Source: Butyrivibrio sp.
GTDB taxonomy: Bacteria; Bacillota; Clostridia; Lachnospirales; Lachnospiraceae
Assembly: GCA_023664865.1 (NCBI GenBank)
Contig: JAMPEU010000023.1
Location: 1 to 42,872, forward strand
Direction: 5' to 3'
DNA: 42,872 nt
This document shows positions 3,093-42,139 of this stretch, in pieces (the first letter of the stretch is position 1; each line of letters begins with the position of its first letter). The notes under the pieces are model-generated. The model worked only from the letters and a program-made list of their open reading frames with translations, had not been told where the DNA came from and made no database searches. Position numbers and translations under genes: made by a program.

Positions 3093-3878
3093 CTATGTTT
3101 CACGATACTTAATAGCATTTTTATTCACTAATTTAATTGTAAATGGTTTATATTGAAAATCTAGATATCCAATCATAACAATATAATAGACCGTTTCTTT
3201 TTTTACTAAATCATTTATATCACCTCTATATAAACTGGTTCTGCTTTTCCATTCACCCTTATTATTTTGAGTGTAAATTTTTAGCAGATAGTACTTATAG
3301 CAATTTTCCGGATTGTCACTATTTTTTTCTTTTTCTACAACTTCTAATTTTACTTTGCCATAGAATACATAAAGGTCTGTGCCGTCCGATTCATCTATCC
3401 AACCATTAAGTCTTTTACGGCGCAATGCTCTTAAAATTGTTTCTTTTCCTTTTTGCTCAGAAATAAGCATCGAATTTTCTCTTTTATTTGTTTCTTCAGC
3501 ACCATCAGTATTTGTCTTTTTCATTTTGGGCTTTCGACATAACATATTCATGATTGAATTTAACTTATCTTGTATTGCACCATAATCTAAAGAATCTACA
3601 TATTTTTTAATTGTCTTTTTTGATGCATATTCATAACAATATGAACATCCATTTGCATGATTTGAAGATGCAATTTTTCTTAAATGTGCACGCCGTTTAG
3701 ATGTTTTATGAACAAAAGACAATTCTGCTTGTTGACATTCTGGACAAAACATATCCCCATGAAATTCCCCAATATCTCCATCATGAATCTCTGCATAATT
3801 AGCTACAATATCAATATTAAAAATATTATCTTTACTTTTAGAATAAAATTCTTCAAAACTTTTAACTTTTTCACTCAT
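3093..3878 (-). CDS. Hypothetical protein with zinc-ribbon-like cysteines
   Basis: A 261-residue protein I do not recognise as a whole. Near residues 43-82 it has CPEC, a basic stretch with His (RRAHLRKIASSNHANG) and CSYC. The pattern resembles the zinc-binding 'CxxC ... H ... CxxC' N-terminal modules of CoiA-like and other nucleic-acid-associated proteins. The middle is Lys-rich and disordered-looking (KPKMKKTNTDGAEETNKRE); the C-terminal half is a beta-rich domain (YKYYLLKIYTQNNKGEWKSR). A GTG at 3887 is an alternative start; the ATG at 3878 follows GGAAAGTGA. It lies downstream of, and in the same direction as, the HTH-GTPase gene with a gap of about 200 bp, so the two may work together. 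That link is inference only. Confidence 0.6.
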   Translation of the reverse strand: MSEKVKSFEEFYSKSKDNIFNIDIVANYAEIHDGDIGEFHGDMFCPECQQAELSFVHKTSKRRAHLRKIASSNHANGCSYCYEYASKKTIKKYVDSLDYGAIQDKLNSIMNMLCRKPKMKKTNTDGAEETNKRENSMLISEQKGKETILRALRRKRLNGWIDESDGTDLYVFYGKVKLEVVEKEKNSDNPENCYKYYLLKIYTQNNKGEWKSRTSLYRGDINDLVKKETVYYIVMIGYLDFQYKPFTIKLVNKNAIKYRET

Positions 3879-3965
3879 ATAAATCACTCACTTTCCGTTT
3901 TTGTGTTCCCTATAAATTCCATGTATACCATATAACAATTGGAAATGCTTAATTATATTGACATA

Positions 3966-4082
3966 TTATTTGCCTTCCAAAAGTTGCACACACTCTTCCC
4001 TTCATTTTTCTGCTTCTATTGCTTTCAGTTGAGCGCTTTCTTCCGTTTCATATTGTCCATCTGCATCTAAAAAACGTATTAC
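3966..4082 (-). pseudogene. Short coding relic between the GTPase and zinc-ribbon genes
   Basis: On the minus strand a gene-like peptide, RFLDADGQYETEESAQLKAI, runs to a TGA at 4002-4004. It continues in the same frame as REECVQLLEGK to a TAA at 3966-3968. It has no start of its own and overlaps the last codon of the GTPase gene in another frame. It is best read as a leftover 3' end of a lost gene; family not recognised. Confidence 0.3.
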
Positions 4083-5995
4083 CTATCATTTACCTGCCTT
4101 CTCATAAATTGATCTTTAACTATAGTTACCACCTGTCCCTCATCCTCGTATGAATCAATTTCCCAAAGGATATCTGTATATATATCAACAGCAGCACGAT
4201 ATAACAAACCACTAACAGCACAGTTACGAATCAAATCCCTTACATATTGACCATCTTTACATTCTTCATCAAGCAAACCACTTTCGGTCAGTATTCTTAA
4301 ATCCCCTATACCGTACGGATTCGCAACTGTACGATCCCAACTATTACTTTGAATATTATATCTCTGAAGAACAGTACGATATCTTTTTGTTATCTCTATC
4401 CTTTCCTCCGTAGTATATTCAACCTTACCTTCAAACTCCTTAAGCGCATCATATAATTCTGATGCAAAAATACTTTCACAAGTCCTCATTGTAACAGCTG
4501 GCGAATCTTCCCACGGGTGAATGCCTATTCCAACACCAGGACAAGATTTTATTGTACGATCTATGGTCTGATATACATACTGAATAAGCTTTTGTCTCCA
4601 CTCTTCCGAATAGTCGTTCAAAGAATAACTTTCCATTTTTTTACTATTTTCAAGCAATACGTCTTGACATTGTACATTAACATCGCTAAGAATCCTATAT
4701 TGATCTTGTGACTTAACTCGCGCATGTTTTTCTTCTTTGAATTTGTCAATAGCCTCCATTCTACTTTCTTTATCTACAGGATATATCTGTGGTGTGTATA
4801 TAACATCATAAAGCAATGTGATTACTTCGTCTTTTGTCACATTTGCCTCCTTTATTGCTGTTCCAACACACTCTGCTGAGATTTTATCTCCTACCCCAGC
4901 AATAATCTGTTTTGTCAAATCTGTAGTAAACAAATCTTCCACATCCGAATATTTCTTTGACTTAAAAATTGGCAACGCTACAAAGTGATCCAGCGGATGC
5001 AATGCATTTAATGAACTCATAATGATGCTATCGTGATTGAAAGCCGACTTAATTTTCTCTTCAAATCTTTTCATAGATTTGTTGCCATCTTCTTGCGCCT
5101 CATAGTATTCACTATCCTCAGTAACATTATCATTAGTACGATAAACATAAACCACCGGGGTCGTTCCCACAAGCCCCGCAATTTTCATAATGGATTTTGT
5201 AAATTCCTGCATATTTTCATCGCGCATTGTAATAATGACTACGTCTTGACGACTAAGGCTATCAAACGTATAATCTCCTGAAACTCCAGGTGTATCTGTG
5301 AGGACAATAGATTGCTTACCCGTTTTATCCATTATTTCTTTTGCCATTTCACTCGGTCGTGTGTACAATTCCAAAGATACCAACTCGTCCAAATTTTTTA
5401 TACCAGAATCATGCAAGTTTCTCAACCAATCATTAATAACTGTCATCGCAACTTGAAAGTCTGGTGCATTTACATCAATGGCCACTGCCCTGCGAACATA
5501 AGAATTAACCTTCGTACTAATTTGATTTGAAAGCTGTTCGCTTATATTACACCTAAAAAACGGTGAAGTATCAGTTATATTAATTTTTGTAGGTATCTGT
5601 GTAAAATCACTTCCTCCGCCACACAAAGCTTGGCGCATAAATACATGATTCTCAATAAAATATGAAGCAATAAAACTCTTACCTACCCTTGCCCGGCCAA
5701 TCAAGCTAATATTCAGCGCAAAATCCATCGTTTCCCGTTGCAACCGCTGAATGTCACGATATCTTGTTTGTTTTCCATAAATAGGAATATTATGGGCATG
5801 AGCCCATTTAATTACATCGCCATAAAAATAGATTGGTGTTCCCTTCTCATTGTTACGGTCAATAGGAAAATCAGGATTTCTTTTCTTTCTGTTAGATACA
5901 TCCGAAGATGATAAATTAGTCATCTCAGATATGTCCTTGGCTTGAACTCGACTATTGTATCCAAAAGAACCTATTGACAACCTCTCATTCTGCAT
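4079..5995 (-). CDS. HTH-GTPase fusion (dynamin-like/TRAFAC P-loop GTPase)
   Basis: A 638-residue protein. Residues about 16-70 look like a MerR/excisionase-type helix-turn-helix: KDISEMTNLSSSDVSNRKKR, then PIYFYGDVIKWAHAHNI. Similar modules sit at the N-termini of some DNA methylases and phage proteins. A P-loop GTPase follows: G1 GRARVGKS (100-107), a candidate G2 Thr near 136, G3 DTPG (234-237), and a G4-like YRTND (285-289) in place of NKxD. The remaining 300 residues are helical and unrecognised. The start is supported by AGAGAGGT, 7 nt before the ATG. Coupling DNA binding to GTP hydrolysis is unusual. Its position among other defence-like genes suggests a role in sensing invaders, which is inference. 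The altered G4 raises the question of nucleotide specificity. Confidence 0.7.
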   Translation of the reverse strand: MQNERLSIGSFGYNSRVQAKDISEMTNLSSSDVSNRKKRNPDFPIDRNNEKGTPIYFYGDVIKWAHAHNIPIYGKQTRYRDIQRLQRETMDFALNISLIGRARVGKSFIASYFIENHVFMRQALCGGGSDFTQIPTKINITDTSPFFRCNISEQLSNQISTKVNSYVRRAVAIDVNAPDFQVAMTVINDWLRNLHDSGIKNLDELVSLELYTRPSEMAKEIMDKTGKQSIVLTDTPGVSGDYTFDSLSRQDVVIITMRDENMQEFTKSIMKIAGLVGTTPVVYVYRTNDNVTEDSEYYEAQEDGNKSMKRFEEKIKSAFNHDSIIMSSLNALHPLDHFVALPIFKSKKYSDVEDLFTTDLTKQIIAGVGDKISAECVGTAIKEANVTKDEVITLLYDVIYTPQIYPVDKESRMEAIDKFKEEKHARVKSQDQYRILSDVNVQCQDVLLENSKKMESYSLNDYSEEWRQKLIQYVYQTIDRTIKSCPGVGIGIHPWEDSPAVTMRTCESIFASELYDALKEFEGKVEYTTEERIEITKRYRTVLQRYNIQSNSWDRTVANPYGIGDLRILTESGLLDEECKDGQYVRDLIRNCAVSGLLYRAAVDIYTDILWEIDSYEDEGQVVTIVKDQFMRRQVNDR

Positions 5996-38602: not shown

Positions 38603-39157
38603 TTAATTTGCAGCGTCTTTGTTATATTTTCCTTTATATTGTAATGCTAATCGTTCCATATCCTTAAAGTCTATACATCTCTTAGAAACAACATGCTCCG
38701 GTTTATCATATTTTAACCTATATAATTCTTCAGCTTTAGTCCCTATGTCTAAAGAATTTATTGCCATTAATTCAACATCTAACAAATTAATGTATTTACT
38801 TTTTTCTATTTCAGACTTAAATGTCCTATATGTATGAATTTCTTTCTTTTCAAACGGTGTTGTTTCATCCTTTGGTATCGGAAACATATAATTTAAGTTT
38901 ACAACAGCAAGCAACCTTTTAGGATTCTTTGGATCAAAGACTTTATAAAAATCCTTTTGCTGTTTTAATCTCTCATGACGCGGTTGAGCATGAGAAATCT
39001 GTGTAACATAATACAGGTCGCCTATCTCAAACAAAATACCAAAAAACGGCTTATATCTATCTGTTCCATAATCTGTTAATGGTATACGTTTTTCCACAAT
39101 CCTCAAATAATCAAGATATTTTTCATTCACATTAATCCATTTATCTTTCGTCTCCAA
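38603..39157 (-). CDS. toxN: Type III toxin (ToxN/AbiQ family endoribonuclease)
   Basis: A 184-residue protein with the ToxN/AbiQ layout: NEKYLDYLRIVEKRIPLTDY, then RYKPFFGILFEIGDLYYVTQ, ISHAQPRHER and AVVNLNYMFPIP, a helical middle and a Lys-rich C-terminus. Toxins of this family cut RNA and are held inactive by a repeat RNA. The context is decisive: a terminator and three tandem RNA repeats lie directly upstream on the same strand. The first start is a TTG at 39157 that overlaps GGAG; a GTG at 39130 would give MNEKY. No start has a good ribosome site, consistent with low toxin expression by leaky termination. Such systems often abort phage infection. Confidence 0.85.
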   Translation of the reverse strand: METKDKWINVNEKYLDYLRIVEKRIPLTDYGTDRYKPFFGILFEIGDLYYVTQISHAQPRHERLKQQKDFYKVFDPKNPKRLLAVVNLNYMFPIPKDETTPFEKKEIHTYRTFKSEIEKSKYINLLDVELMAINSLDIGTKAEELYRLKYDKPEHVVSKRCIDFKDMERLALQYKGKYNKDAAN

Positions 39158-39183
39158 ATAATAAAGGAACTGAAAACAGTTCC
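39156..39183 (-). terminator. Attenuating terminator between antitoxin RNA and toxN
   Basis: On the minus strand GGAACTG-TTTT-CAGTTCC (39183-39166) forms a perfect 7-bp stem, followed by TTTATTATTT. It directly abuts repeat 3 and ends about 8 nt before the toxin frame, the expected type III position that sets the antitoxin:toxin ratio. Confidence 0.85.
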
Positions 39184-39284
39184 TCTATTAATACGATTTT
39201 ATTAGGCTTCGTAACCTCTATTAATACAGTATTTATCAGGCTCTGTAACCTCTATATAATACGATTTTGATTGGTTTCGTAACC
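39184..39284 (-). ncRNA. toxI: Type III antitoxin RNA (ToxI-like), three 33-34-nt repeats
   Basis: Three tandem units are transcribed leftward: 39284-39251, 39250-39217 (34 nt each) and 39216-39184 (33 nt). Each begins GGTTAC and ends ATAGA. In each, GGTT pairs with AACC or AGCC. The loop ACGA (units 1, 3) or ACAG (unit 2) is complementary to the downstream TCGT or CTGT in the same unit. The paired changes are compensatory and support an H-type pseudoknot, the known antitoxin fold. Promoter at 39317-39345; terminator at 39166-39183. Confidence 0.88.
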
Positions 39285-39316
39285 AAATATAGAAATCCTT
39301 ATAGATTTCTTATTAT

Positions 39317-39345
39317 ATTATATCCAAGTCACATAAAATATGCAA
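39317..39345 (-). promoter_or_regulatory. Sigma-A promoter of the type III locus
   Basis: TTGCAT (39345-39340) and TATAAT (39322-39317) are separated by exactly 17 nt on the minus strand. The start of transcription would be near 39310, about 25 nt before the first repeat. Confidence 0.8.
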
Positions 39346-39507
39346 TAAAAATTAAATGAACTTTTTGTGAACTTTTTAAAATATATCATCTTTATTGACA
39401 AACTTATTATATCACCTGGATATTAATTAATCAACAGCACGCTAATGTGAATTGATAAGCAGATATGAATATATGCCAGTTGATATAAAGCATTTCAAAA
39501 TATGGCA

Positions 39508-39535
39508 TTGCTTTTTTGATAATTTTGAGTATAAT
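39508..39535 (+). promoter_or_regulatory. Promoter of the second, divergent repeat-RNA locus
   Basis: TTGCTT (39508-39513) and TATAAT (39530-39535) are spaced 16 nt. Transcription would begin near 39542, about 12 nt before the first 49-nt repeat. Confidence 0.7.
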
Positions 39536-39553
39536 AATATACAGAAAATATTG

Positions 39554-39651
39554 CCGCTTACTGATGGCGCGGGATATAAGTTATTCAGTGTGTCAAATGT
39601 TCCCGCTTACTGATGGTGCGGAATATAAGTTATTCGGTGCGAAAATCTTTC
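39554..39651 (+). ncRNA. Orphan type III antitoxin-like RNA, two 49-nt repeats
   Basis: Two direct repeats, 39554-39602 and 39603-39651, share CCGCTTACTGATGG, TGCGG or CGCGG, and ATATAAGTTATTC. In each, CCGC pairs with GCGG 11 nt later. The loop ACTGA is complementary to TCAGT in unit 1 and to TCGGT (one G-U pair) in unit 2, again an H-type pseudoknot. A strong promoter, terminator and ribosome site complete the type III plan. The repeat length differs from the neighbouring locus, so it belongs to another subfamily, possibly CptI-like (uncertain). Confidence 0.75.
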
Positions 39652-39676
39652 CCCACCTTCTGTGGTGGGGATTTTT
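39651..39676 (+). terminator. Terminator after the orphan repeat RNA
   Basis: CCCCACC (39651-39657) pairs perfectly with GGTGGGG (39664-39670) over a 6-nt loop and is followed by ATTTTT. It sits directly after repeat 2, as in type III loci. Confidence 0.85.
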
Positions 39677-39689
39677 ATCAAGGAGAAAT

Positions 39690-39734
39690 ATGGATATACA
39701 GTCTGGTTTTTATTATCACATCAATCCACTGTTA
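39690..39734 (+). pseudogene. N-terminal stub of a second type III toxin
   Basis: AAGGAG (39680-39685) precedes an ATG at 39690. The peptide MDIQSGFYYHINPLL looks like the start of a CptN/ToxN-type toxin (short strand with GFYY). After about 15 codons the sequence becomes the 3' end of the oppositely oriented oxidoreductase gene (its stop is at 39735). The toxin body has therefore been lost, leaving the RNA without a cognate toxin here. Confidence 0.55.
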
Positions 39735-40781
39735 TCAACCAACTCCAGATGCCATCTCCTTAAACGTACCCGCCATCTCTCCTACAAGGCTCCACTGGCG
39801 CTGCATATAAGATTTCAGGCTGTCCGTGCTTTGCTCATAAGCTTCGCGGACAGTCTGCGGATTCTCAAAATGCTCCATGATTGCGTGGGCAGCGCAGAAT
39901 CCGCTTTCCATTCCGGCGGATATGCCTTCGCCCATAGGGTTAAGAAATCCGGCAGTCTCACCTGCAAAAAGGATACGCCCCACACCGTAGTCCACATGGC
40001 AGCCCGGACGAATATGCGGCATTAACCATTTTTCTTCCTTAACCTGACTGTCAATCTGCAGATTATGCTGCTCTTTCATATAATTAATGAAACGCTCATA
40101 ATAGTGCCTGATTTTATCCACATTCTTCACGGATACGCCAAGCACCAGAAGTTCATCTTTTACATTGAACCACGCATCATATTCCGACAGTTCCGACTGC
40201 AAATACGCATAAAAATAATGTGAATCTAAATCTATACTGCCCTTATTAAACGTCTGAAAAGTAGTTATATATCCTGCATTCTCCCCGATAATCTTCCGCT
40301 TAAGCGTCCCTACCACGCCTTCGCAGTCTAAGACATATCTCGCGTTTTCCGTATAATTAATTTCACCATTCAGGCTGACTTCCACCAAATCATCTTGCTC
40401 TATACAGGAAACCGCCGCTACGCCATCGTTTACTTTTGCACCGCTTTTCTTTGCCTTTTCCGCCAGCCAACCGTCAAACCCACTGCGCCACACATTCAGA
40501 CCTTCTTGCAGGGAACGGTATTCTTTTCCACAATCGTTTGTGAAAATCATGCCCCTGTTTTCTGTCGGAGTACACATCGCAGATTCGGGCACCGCCTCGC
40601 CGAAATATTTCTTCACAAGCTCCATTGATTTCTTTATCAGAATGCCCGAACAGGATTTATACCTCGGCAGCTTAAATTTCTCCACCAGAAGAACTTTATA
40701 TCCCTTTTCTGTTAAAATCTTAGCTGCCGTACACCCTGCCGGTCCCGCTCCGATTACTATCACGTCATATATATTTTGCAT
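39735..40781 (-). CDS. FAD-dependent oxidoreductase, geranylgeranyl-reductase family
   Basis: A 348-residue flavoprotein. It has an N-terminal Rossmann motif VIVIGAGPAGCTAAKILTEK, the acidic end VLLVEK, a PRYKSCSGILIKK segment typical of geranylgeranyl reductase-like proteins, and the second FAD motif ILFAGETAGFLNPMGEGISA. It probably reduces an isoprenoid or a related unsaturated lipid; substrate not known. The frame opens at 40817, but the ATG at 40781 has GGAAGGGAAG upstream and overlaps the stop of the DUF4179 gene by one base (TAATG). That couples it to the sigma-factor operon. The C-terminus lies exactly at the join with the type III toxin stub, so its last residues may be altered. Confidence 0.85.
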   Translation of the reverse strand: MQNIYDVIVIGAGPAGCTAAKILTEKGYKVLLVEKFKLPRYKSCSGILIKKSMELVKKYFGEAVPESAMCTPTENRGMIFTNDCGKEYRSLQEGLNVWRSGFDGWLAEKAKKSGAKVNDGVAAVSCIEQDDLVEVSLNGEINYTENARYVLDCEGVVGTLKRKIIGENAGYITTFQTFNKGSIDLDSHYFYAYLQSELSEYDAWFNVKDELLVLGVSVKNVDKIRHYYERFINYMKEQHNLQIDSQVKEEKWLMPHIRPGCHVDYGVGRILFAGETAGFLNPMGEGISAGMESGFCAAHAIMEHFENPQTVREAYEQSTDSLKSYMQRQWSLVGEMAGTFKEMASGVG

Positions 40782-42139
40782 TAGTATTCTTCCCTTCCAA
40801 TCTCCACCACATAACAATCATCTTCCGTTCCGGTCCTCTCTCCTGATTCAGACTTTTGAAACAGGAACGCATCTACCTGATTGACGTCAAGTATTCTGTC
40901 AACGGCAAACATATACACATATTGGCTGCTGTCTTTACTCATATATCCCATCTGCCCCGGTCCCATATAGAGATATGGATATGCTGTTCCGTCTTTCATT
41001 CTCACGCCGACAAGCGCAGGCGGCTCTACATAAGTTTCGTGCAGGAAAGTTTCTCCGGTTTCTGCATGTGCTGCCTCTTCCTGAATGGTTTGTCTGGGCG
41101 CGTCATAAACTGCTTTTATTGAAATCGGTGATATCTCCACGCCCGTTACCGTTACGCCTGTATCTCCTAACGGCGCATTACATTCCGCCTTATATATTTC
41201 ATCGCTGCCCTGCAGAGTCCAGTTGAAACTCCATTCTCCTGCCATTCTATTCTCATACTCTCCTCTATTTGTATAAGTCCCCAGATTTTTGAGTTTTACG
41301 CTGACAGGTTTATTCAAGAAAAAACCTTCCCTATTTTGTGCGTTGAGATACATATGATATTCCAGCGTACCGTCCTCTGTCTTATATCTGGAAATCGTTC
41401 TTCCATCTGAATCTGTCTGCAAAGGAGTGCCGTCTTCATACACTGCCTTTCCCCTATCCTCTGCCTTATATCTGGAAATCGTTCTTCCGTCTGCGTCCGT
41501 CTGCAAAGGGGTGCCATCTTCATACACTGCCTTTCCCATATCCCCTGCAATAACACCATCATAAAAGCTTGCATCCCACGAAACGAACTCGCCGTCAACC
41601 AAAGCGTCCATATATTCAAATGCGGGTTCTTCATTATCCGCTAATTCAAAACCGCTTACTTCAAAAGACAGTAAGGCATAATAGTTATCCACAATGCTTT
41701 GTTTCGCGGTTACGGTAATTCCATTACAAGTAACTGACTGTTCGGGAAAATCCGCAAGCTTTATCTCTTCCGCCTGAGTTTTTATTTCTTCCGTTGCATG
41801 CAGACTATTTTCAATTCCCCGCGACCAATTCATATGGTAGGCAAAACACGCCGTACCGAATGCAAGGACTAATACTGCTGCCAAAACGCACGCTGCCTTT
41901 AACCTTGTTTTTAATCTTCTGTTTGATTTTATCGCACTTTCTCTCACTTTTATCATTTTCCGTTTTTCTTCTCCTTCTTTTTTTGCCTTTCGACTTTCTC
42001 TGATTTCTTTTTCTAAGTCCTGATTTTCTCTACATTTTTCATCGGCATGAATTATGTCGAAAGCATTCTCCGCTTTTTTCAATACAACGTCCGGAATCAC
42101 TATATCTTTTTCTAAAATCTGCATTTTATCCTGTATCAT
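40781..42139 (-). CDS. DUF4179 membrane protein, likely anti-sigma factor
   Basis: A 452-residue protein. The N-terminal cytoplasmic region (about 1-80) is highly charged. A single membrane segment follows (ACVLAAVLVLAFGTACFAYH, 83-102), then an extracellular domain of the DUF4179 type beginning ITVTAKQSIVDNYYALLSFE. Position and topology fit an anti-sigma factor that holds the ECF sigma factor encoded upstream; its ATG overlaps the sigma stop by 4 bp. Residues about 198-253 contain two copies of a 28-residue unit (GKAVYEDGTPLQTDxDGRTI), an internal tandem duplication also present at DNA level. A signal outside the cell would presumably release the sigma factor. Confidence 0.82.
   Translation of the reverse strand: MIQDKMQILEKDIVIPDVVLKKAENAFDIIHADEKCRENQDLEKEIRESRKAKKEGEEKRKMIKVRESAIKSNRRLKTRLKAACVLAAVLVLAFGTACFAYHMNWSRGIENSLHATEEIKTQAEEIKLADFPEQSVTCNGITVTAKQSIVDNYYALLSFEVSGFELADNEEPAFEYMDALVDGEFVSWDASFYDGVIAGDMGKAVYEDGTPLQTDADGRTISRYKAEDRGKAVYEDGTPLQTDSDGRTISRYKTEDGTLEYHMYLNAQNREGFFLNKPVSVKLKNLGTYTNRGEYENRMAGEWSFNWTLQGSDEIYKAECNAPLGDTGVTVTGVEISPISIKAVYDAPRQTIQEEAAHAETGETFLHETYVEPPALVGVRMKDGTAYPYLYMGPGQMGYMSKDSSQYVYMFAVDRILDVNQVDAFLFQKSESGERTGTEDDCYVVEIGREEY
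41381..41548. repeat. Tandem 84-bp duplication inside the DUF4179 gene
   Basis: 41381-41464 and 41465-41548 are near-identical in-frame copies of 28 codons. Only scattered base changes separate them, which indicates a recent duplication with room to expand or contract by recombination. Confidence 0.9.

What the first reader, a model, noticed from the sequence alone, without database searches (positions are those of the whole stretch)
39508..39734. Second, divergent type III locus reduced to an orphan antitoxin RNA
Promoter, two 49-nt repeats with a conserved pseudoknot (ACTGA with TCAGT or wobble TCGGT), terminator, ribosome site and about 15 toxin codons are present, then the sequence runs into another gene. 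The RNA machinery is intact and the toxin is gone. The RNA might be a simple relic, or an anti-addiction RNA that neutralises toxins of the same subfamily carried by phages or plasmids.
Basis: partly seen in the sequence, partly recalled or inferred. Interest (0 to 1): 0.8.

Follow-up and report, generated by a model that had tools for sequence, protein, structure and literature searches.

The report
Antitoxin RNA that lost its toxin
A bacterium still carries the small RNA that once kept a toxin in check, but the toxin gene has been cut away; a sister species has the complete pair at the same spot, so this is most likely a recent leftover, although the RNA may still be able to neutralise that toxin.

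Summary
Observation confirmed. Window 39546-39643 holds two 49-nt pseudoknot units with a -10 box, terminator, ribosome site and the first 11 toxin codons. [quoted passage not shown] The decisive find is a sister genome (G416) with an intact CptIN locus at the same site, beside the same FAD-oxidoreductase gene; it matches the window at 225 of 229 nt and unit 1 is identical. In the window a deletion removed the toxin from codon 12 on. No CptN was found in the own genome. Loss of the toxin with the array kept is common: 32 of 77 classifiable distinct loci. Toxin remnants show no drift (median dN/dS 0.105 against 0.11), and the window's unit 2 has a weakened pseudoknot pair, so a young relic is the best reading. 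Anti-addiction is not excluded: unit 1 equals the sister's, and one unit suffices in E. rectale CptIN (PMC4627078). New member of a known kind.

The parts
39496..39724 (+). Whole surviving CptIN stretch: promoter region, array, terminator, ribosome site, toxin start
   Evidence: 225 of 229 nt identical, no gaps, to the intact CptIN locus of sister genome G416 (L192), then abrupt end
39530..39535 (+). -10 box TATAAT (the -35 is weak)
   Evidence: Sequence; pair not listed by the promoter scan
39546..39594 (+). CptI unit 1 (S1 39554-39557 with 39569-39572; pseudoknot 39560-39564 with 39585-39589)
   Evidence: identical to unit 1 of G416; RNA model E 4.8e-7
39595..39643 (+). CptI unit 2 (S1 39603-39606 with 39618-39621; pseudoknot 39609-39613 with 39634-39638, one U-G)
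   Evidence: RNA model E 4.0e-12, but this unit was in the training alignment
39650..39671 (+). Rho-independent terminator stem-loop, followed by a T-run
39680..39685 (+). Ribosome binding site AAGGAG of the lost toxin
   Evidence: Sequence; same in G416
39690..39724 (+). Remnant of cptN: first 11 codons plus 2 nt; the frame runs on as a 111-residue ORF antisense to the FAD gene
   Evidence: Identical to the cptN start of G416; ORF length; profile match to toxin positions 1-12 only
39725..39752 (.). Deletion junction, 28 nt of unknown origin
   Evidence: No shared 10-mer with L192
39735..40817 (-). FAD-dependent oxidoreductase (PF01494) whose end was changed by the deletion; anchors the site in G416
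38603..39157 (-). Context: separate, apparently intact ToxN/AbiQ-type toxin, back to back with the orphan array
   Evidence: PF13958 E 6.5e-42; AbiQ in PADLOC E 1.8e-21
39182..39284 (-). Context: three 34-nt repeats upstream of that ToxN (its own antitoxin array by layout)

Best explanation
This is a CptIN type III toxin-antitoxin locus that lost its toxin gene by a recent deletion. A CptIN module sits at this site, beside the FAD-oxidoreductase gene, in the sister genome too (shown), so it was probably there before the two lineages separated (inferred). In the window's lineage a deletion removed cptN from codon 12 on and the very end of the FAD gene (shown by comparison; single event inferred). 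The promoter region, both CptI units, the terminator and the toxin's ribosome site survive. If transcribed (not shown), the RNA should fold into two H-type pseudoknots. No CptN was found in this genome, so it has no known partner here. It is a young relic, and because unit 1 is unchanged it should still be able to bind the sister's CptN if that toxin entered the cell (inferred).
For: Sister genome G416: intact cptN (NF047359 179.1 bits, cut-off 90; 4rmo E 2.9e-23) and array next to the same FAD gene, 225 of 229 nt identical. Helix covariation on 62 distinct second units: 98.7% of cells paired, 69 two-sided changes against 18.0 in shuffles. No CptN in the own genome while the same search rings in 66 of 397 relatives. 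Losses of this kind are frequent and mostly young: 32 of 77 loci; dN/dS of remnants 0.105 (n=16) against 0.11 (n=36) in intact genes. The window's unit 2 alone among 62 second units has U-G at one pseudoknot pair where the sister has C-G.
Against: The RNA stretch differs from the sister at 4 of 229 nt while FAD third codon positions differ at 35 of 342, so the RNA is well kept; part of that time the toxin was still there, so this does not separate relic from upkeep. The measure 'further pair types' did not exceed shuffles (11 against 11.0). In a related CptI subfamily a toxin-less array persists across about 20% third-position divergence of its neighbour gene.
Confidence: 0.8

Rival explanations
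1. Anti-addiction RNA: the host keeps the array because it neutralises CptN toxins that arrive on mobile elements, so that such an element cannot hold or harm the cell.
For: Unit 1 is identical to the unit of an intact system in the sister. A single unit is fully antitoxic and CptIN stabilises a plasmid in E. coli (PMC4627078, passages). Intact CptIN loci occur in 5 other genomes of the genus; CptN relatives lie on 8 plasmid records (below 60% identity) and one viral contig (L153). Toxin-less arrays recur in a second CptI subfamily.
Against: No selection signature; by a crude scan toxin-less arrays more often lack a -10 box and terminator; unit 2 is slightly weakened; CptI specificity is narrow, none of six non-cognate pairs worked; no match of the stretch on the plasmids searched and only 22-26 nt on phages.
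Confidence: 0.14
2. Assembly or binning artefact: the toxin is present in the cell but was lost at a misjoin.
For: Draft genome of 180 contigs with 5.1% contamination.
Against: The junction lies inside a 42.9-kb contig and carries 28 nt found in neither neighbour; no CptN match anywhere in the genome; comparable losses occur in many other assemblies.
Confidence: 0.04
3. The array serves another partner, for example the ToxN encoded back to back.
For: The two loci are adjacent and divergent.
Against: ToxN has its own 34-nt repeats; CptN and this ToxN show no detectable BLASTP similarity (E 2.2); type III antitoxins are reported to be highly specific (PMC4627078 and PMC5086642, passages).
Confidence: 0.02

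Closest known systems
CptIN of Eubacterium rectale (PDB 4RMO; PMC4627078, passages read)
   Same: H-type pseudoknot units of similar length (45 against 49 nt), same order of stem, loop and A-rich L2, A29 and U30 in place by eye; cognate toxins of the repeat are CptN by NF047359 and by sequence match to 4rmo
   Different: The window has no toxin; the units differ in sequence, so cross-neutralisation with E. rectale CptN is not expected
Intact CptIN of sister genome G416 (L192, JAMPHY010000042.1)
   Same: Same site, 225 of 229 nt identical, unit 1 identical
   Different: Keeps cptN, and has a second CptI-like array, a KAP NTPase and a DUF2971 gene between cptN and the FAD gene
Orphan antitoxins and anti-addiction modules (discussed in PMC12548467, passages)
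   Same: Antitoxin kept without its toxin; could neutralise incoming toxins
   Different: The cases in the passages seen are not type III antitoxin RNAs of this kind; the function is not shown here
Phage PhiTE pseudo-ToxI (PMC3475682, passages)
   Same: Type III antitoxin-like repeats without a toxin that can neutralise a host toxin once expanded
   Different: Phage-borne, of the ToxI family, and selected as an escape from ToxIN

Membership tests
CptIN type III toxin-antitoxin system | Tandem RNA units forming H-type pseudoknots, supported by covariation | tested here: met
   98.7% of cells paired, 69 two-sided changes against 18.0 shuffled, slid partners at most 47.9%
CptIN type III toxin-antitoxin system | Promoter, array, terminator and ribosome site upstream of the toxin | tested here: met
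   the -35 is weak and the promoter pair was not listed by the scan
CptIN type III toxin-antitoxin system | CptN toxin gene next to the array | tested here: not met
   Only 11 codons remain in the window. Met at the same site in G416. Hence: a toxin-less remnant of a CptIN locus, not a complete system
CptIN type III toxin-antitoxin system | Toxin processes the array and is neutralised by it | not testable with these tools
   Needs expression
Anti-addiction module | Neutralises toxins of incoming elements | not testable with these tools
   Needs co-expression with the sister's CptN
Anti-addiction module | Kept by selection after toxin loss | tested here: inconclusive
   No signal; few and young losses, so power is low
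ToxIN type III toxin-antitoxin system | Toxin of family PF13958 next to the array | tested here: not met
   The cognate CptN matches no Pfam family; the PF13958 gene beside it has its own 34-nt repeats on the other strand

The most novel reading that the evidence does not exclude
Toxin-less CptI arrays, seen here in about four tenths of the loci that carry this repeat and also in a second CptI subfamily, act in these bacteria as RNA anti-addiction or counter-defence elements: they protect against CptN toxins carried by plasmids, proviruses and defence islands, and some travel in cassettes with other gene pairs.
Probability: 0.15. Interest if true: 0.7.

Novelty: new member of a known kind. Interest (0 to 1): 0.4.

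Why it matters
It gives a before-and-after pair at one site, intact in a sister species and toxin-less here, for what should be the first viable step in the decay of a type III system (the toxin must go before the antitoxin). It suggests that toxin-less CptI arrays are frequent and would be missed by toxin-based searches. And it makes the question whether an orphan RNA antitoxin still protects directly testable, with a natural toxin whose own antitoxin unit is identical.

Tried and rejected
Rfam: no family at gathering score in the window; three weak hits in 39100-39800 (RprA, snoR103, anti-hemB) lie far below their gathering scores and are taken as chance. blastn of 39500-39740: no plasmid match; 3 phage records with 22-26 nt only. 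tblastn of a CptN against phages: none. A stricter pattern of unit 2 in viral contigs: none.

Selection test: dN/dS of toxin pieces and RNA divergence per dS against the nearest intact relative, chosen by RNA distance. 45 intact and 19 broken rows; 9 and 3 were dropped because dS was undefined or outside 0.05-2; loci whose best toxin piece is shorter than 40 residues, the window among them, gave no row. Two broken rows (L045, L058) lie at contig or stretch edges, and some intact pairs are reciprocal. No difference: 0.11 against 0.105, and 0.085 against 0.075. L034 alone among the used rows reaches 0.43; too few to read.

The -10 and terminator scan is crude: it misses 10 of 45 intact terminators, and by eye L013 and L090 keep hairpins that it missed, so its 5 of 12 for toxin-less loci is a lower bound.

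Covariation alignment: of 92 loci, 9 were left out by hand because no clear second unit was seen, 2 were too short, and identical units were collapsed, leaving 62. The C106 unit is misaligned in it, which adds unpaired cells.

Second own orphan (C106): the sister G416 has other genes after the same ecfT-like gene, so no before-and-after pair there. L037/L088/L091 as an old shared orphan: flanks differ and the shared part is about 98% alike, so it is a recent mobile copy. The origin of the 28-nt junction was not found.

In print: the listings of searches showed no paper on chromosomal orphan type III arrays by title or start of abstract (12 of 129 listed). Four papers were opened for passages only. 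Papers of subscription journals are mostly not held.

Full report
What is there. The window is contig C96 of a 3.82-Mb draft genome in 180 contigs. Two 49-nt units lie head to tail at 39546-39643. Each can form an H-type pseudoknot: CCGC with GCGG, and ACTGA with TCAGT (unit 1) or TCGGT (unit 2). A TATAAT box (39530-39535), a terminator (39650-39671), AAGGAG (39680-39685) and an ATG (39690) follow the layout of a type III toxin-antitoxin locus. The -35 is weak and the promoter scan did not list this pair. Back to back on the other strand sits a separate, apparently intact ToxN/AbiQ-type gene (PF13958, E 6.5e-42; AbiQ in PADLOC) with three 34-nt repeats.

What it belongs to. A pattern for the unit, with up to 3 mismatches, matched 10 of 397 genomes of the family, the own included. 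An exact degenerate pattern matched 80 listed stretches of GTDB genomes (80 is the listing limit of the sister tool, so there may be more); 37 of the 80 titles name Lachnospiraceae. Behind the repeat many loci carry an ORF of about 160 residues. It is CptN: the example from L010 matches NCBIfam NF047359 at 197 bits (cut-off 90) and the solved E. rectale CptN, 4rmo_A, at E 2.4e-25; no Pfam family matched. On 62 distinct second units, aligned without using structure, 98.7% of the cells of the two helices are standard pairs and 69 cells have changes on both sides, against 87.2% and 18.0 in shuffles and at most 47.9% paired for slid partners; one of the five measures, further pair types, did not exceed shuffles. 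The published E. rectale unit (PMC4627078, passages) lines up by eye with the window units, including A29 and U30, whose change abolishes antitoxicity there. The locus is thus of the CptIN family; its toxin in G416 has no detectable BLASTP similarity to the ToxN beside it in the window.

The before-and-after pair. An RNA model built from the second units found arrays in 14 of 397 family genomes and 11 of 77 genus genomes, the own counted in both. One is G416, on the contig that also carries the closest relative of the window's FAD gene (95% identity). There the order is FAD gene, a second CptI-like array, a KAP NTPase (PF07693; PADLOC PDC-S49), a DUF2971 protein, then an intact cptN (NF047359 179.1 bits; 4rmo E 2.9e-23) and its array, convergent with the FAD gene. 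By length and an identical KAP gene this contig is JAMPHY010000042.1, isolate NALB_7961_5. Window 39496-39724 matches it at 225 of 229 nt without gaps and stops abruptly inside codon 12 of the toxin. The FAD genes differ at 54 of 1028 nt and at 35 of 342 third positions. In the window the FAD gene keeps homology to residue 355, as most fetched relatives do, and then runs through 28 nt of unknown origin into the toxin remnant. A deletion thus removed the toxin from codon 12 on and the end of the FAD gene. Whether the KAP cassette was ever present in the window's lineage is not known.

How often it happens. Of 92 array loci in hand, 83 are distinct; 6 end at a contig or stretch edge. Of the other 77, 45 have an intact toxin frame, 20 a broken one (the window is counted here) and 12 none. 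Three of the 12 (L037, L088, L091) are copies of one mobile stretch, and L026 carries a mixed array before another CptN subfamily, so it is not judged fairly. The pattern favours well-kept repeats. In the less biased model search, 15 arrays in 397 genomes come out as 4 intact, 1 at an edge, 4 broken and 6 without a toxin or, in the window, with only its start. In the genus search, the 10 genomes besides the own have 5 intact toxins, 1 broken, 1 at an edge and 3 with weak hits of 9-34 bits. A second CptI subfamily, that of the extra array in G416, gave 10 loci: 3 with an intact toxin frame, 2 broken, 1 at an edge and 4 without a toxin, three of these sharing one junction. The own genome holds a second toxin-less array on C106: the model reports its first unit, and my structure scan sees a second, diverged unit that still pairs. 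No CptN was found in the own genome.

Relic or kept for use? Against upkeep: toxin remnants have the same dN/dS as intact genes (0.105, n=16, against 0.11, n=36), so most losses look young, and RNA divergence per dS is alike (0.075 against 0.085). By a crude scan a -10-like box is found in 44 of 45 intact, 20 of 20 broken and 8 of 12 toxin-less loci, and a terminator in 35 of 45, 16 of 20 and 5 of 12 (at least two toxin-less terminators were missed by the scan). The window's unit 2 has the only U-G among 62 second units at one pseudoknot pair, where the sister has C-G. For possible use: unit 1 is identical to the sister's; a single unit is fully antitoxic in E. rectale CptIN, and CptIN stabilises a plasmid in E. 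coli (PMC4627078, passages); intact CptIN loci occur in 5 other genomes of the genus, and relatives of CptN on 8 plasmid records (below 60% identity) and one viral contig (L153). CptI specificity is narrow: none of six non-cognate pairs worked. In L223, L228 and L229, from three genera, a toxin-less array is fused at the same junction to the same two-gene cassette. Between L223 and L228 the larger gene differs at 40 of 202 third positions, and the arrays persist, by eye with one apparently compensatory pseudoknot change in L223/L229 and one pair-breaking change in L228. That points both ways.

Verdict. The best reading is a young relic made by deletion, with an RNA that probably still works if it is made. 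Anti-addiction is a live but unproven alternative that the sister's toxin makes testable. The kind, an antitoxin without its toxin, is known, with anti-addiction by chromosomal modules and phage pseudo-ToxI as the nearest published ideas (PMC12548467 and PMC3475682, passages). For chromosomal CptI arrays I saw no description in the listings of searches.

Noticed in passing
L002:1449-1555 (own genome G000, contig C106, - strand): A second toxin-less CptI array in the same genome, beside an ecfT-like gene; unit 2 has diverged in sequence but still pairs; no CptIN-like terminator follows. The sister G416 has other genes there.
   Followed up: partly
L192:2170-4411 (G416): A second CptI-like array of another subfamily stands directly before a KAP NTPase (PADLOC PDC-S49) with no toxin between, at the same FAD-gene site.
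   Followed up: partly
window 39735-39870 and genus contigs listed: Short pieces matching only the last 40 or so residues of the FAD gene lie scattered in several genomes of the genus, some with stops; the 3' end of this gene looks like an insertion hotspot.
   Followed up: no
L223, L228, L229 (downstream of the array): A toxin-less CptI array is fused to the same pair of overlapping genes (61 and 202 residues, no NCBIfam match) in three genera, at one shared junction; it looks like a mobile cassette.
   Followed up: partly
L088:700-1623 (also L037, L091): After a toxin-less CptI array comes a separate promoter-like site, an RNA stretch with several inverted repeats, a terminator and a PBECR4-family gene (PF18813, E 9.9e-16): the layout of an RNA-guarded toxin that I cannot name.
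   Followed up: partly
L026 (JAMPFC010000099.1), around 3800-4100, - strand: A mixed array: a unit of the window's kind followed by two E. rectale-type CptI units and an E. rectale-type CptN start, so CptI units of two subfamilies can be joined in one array.
   Followed up: partly
L019 (IMGVR_UViG_2831971958_000011), 4906-4935, - strand; same sequence in L078 (Acetatifactor muris): A toxin-broken CptI array on a contig listed as viral; a toxin piece lies inverted about 1 kb away.
   Followed up: no
own genome contigs C90 and C77 (L005, L006): Two more PF13958 (ToxN) genes with other short repeats upstream, so the genome holds three ToxN-type genes.
   Followed up: no
window 41373-41548: An 84-nt tandem repeat (2.1 copies, 90% matches) inside the 452-residue ORF 40781-42139.
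   Followed up: no
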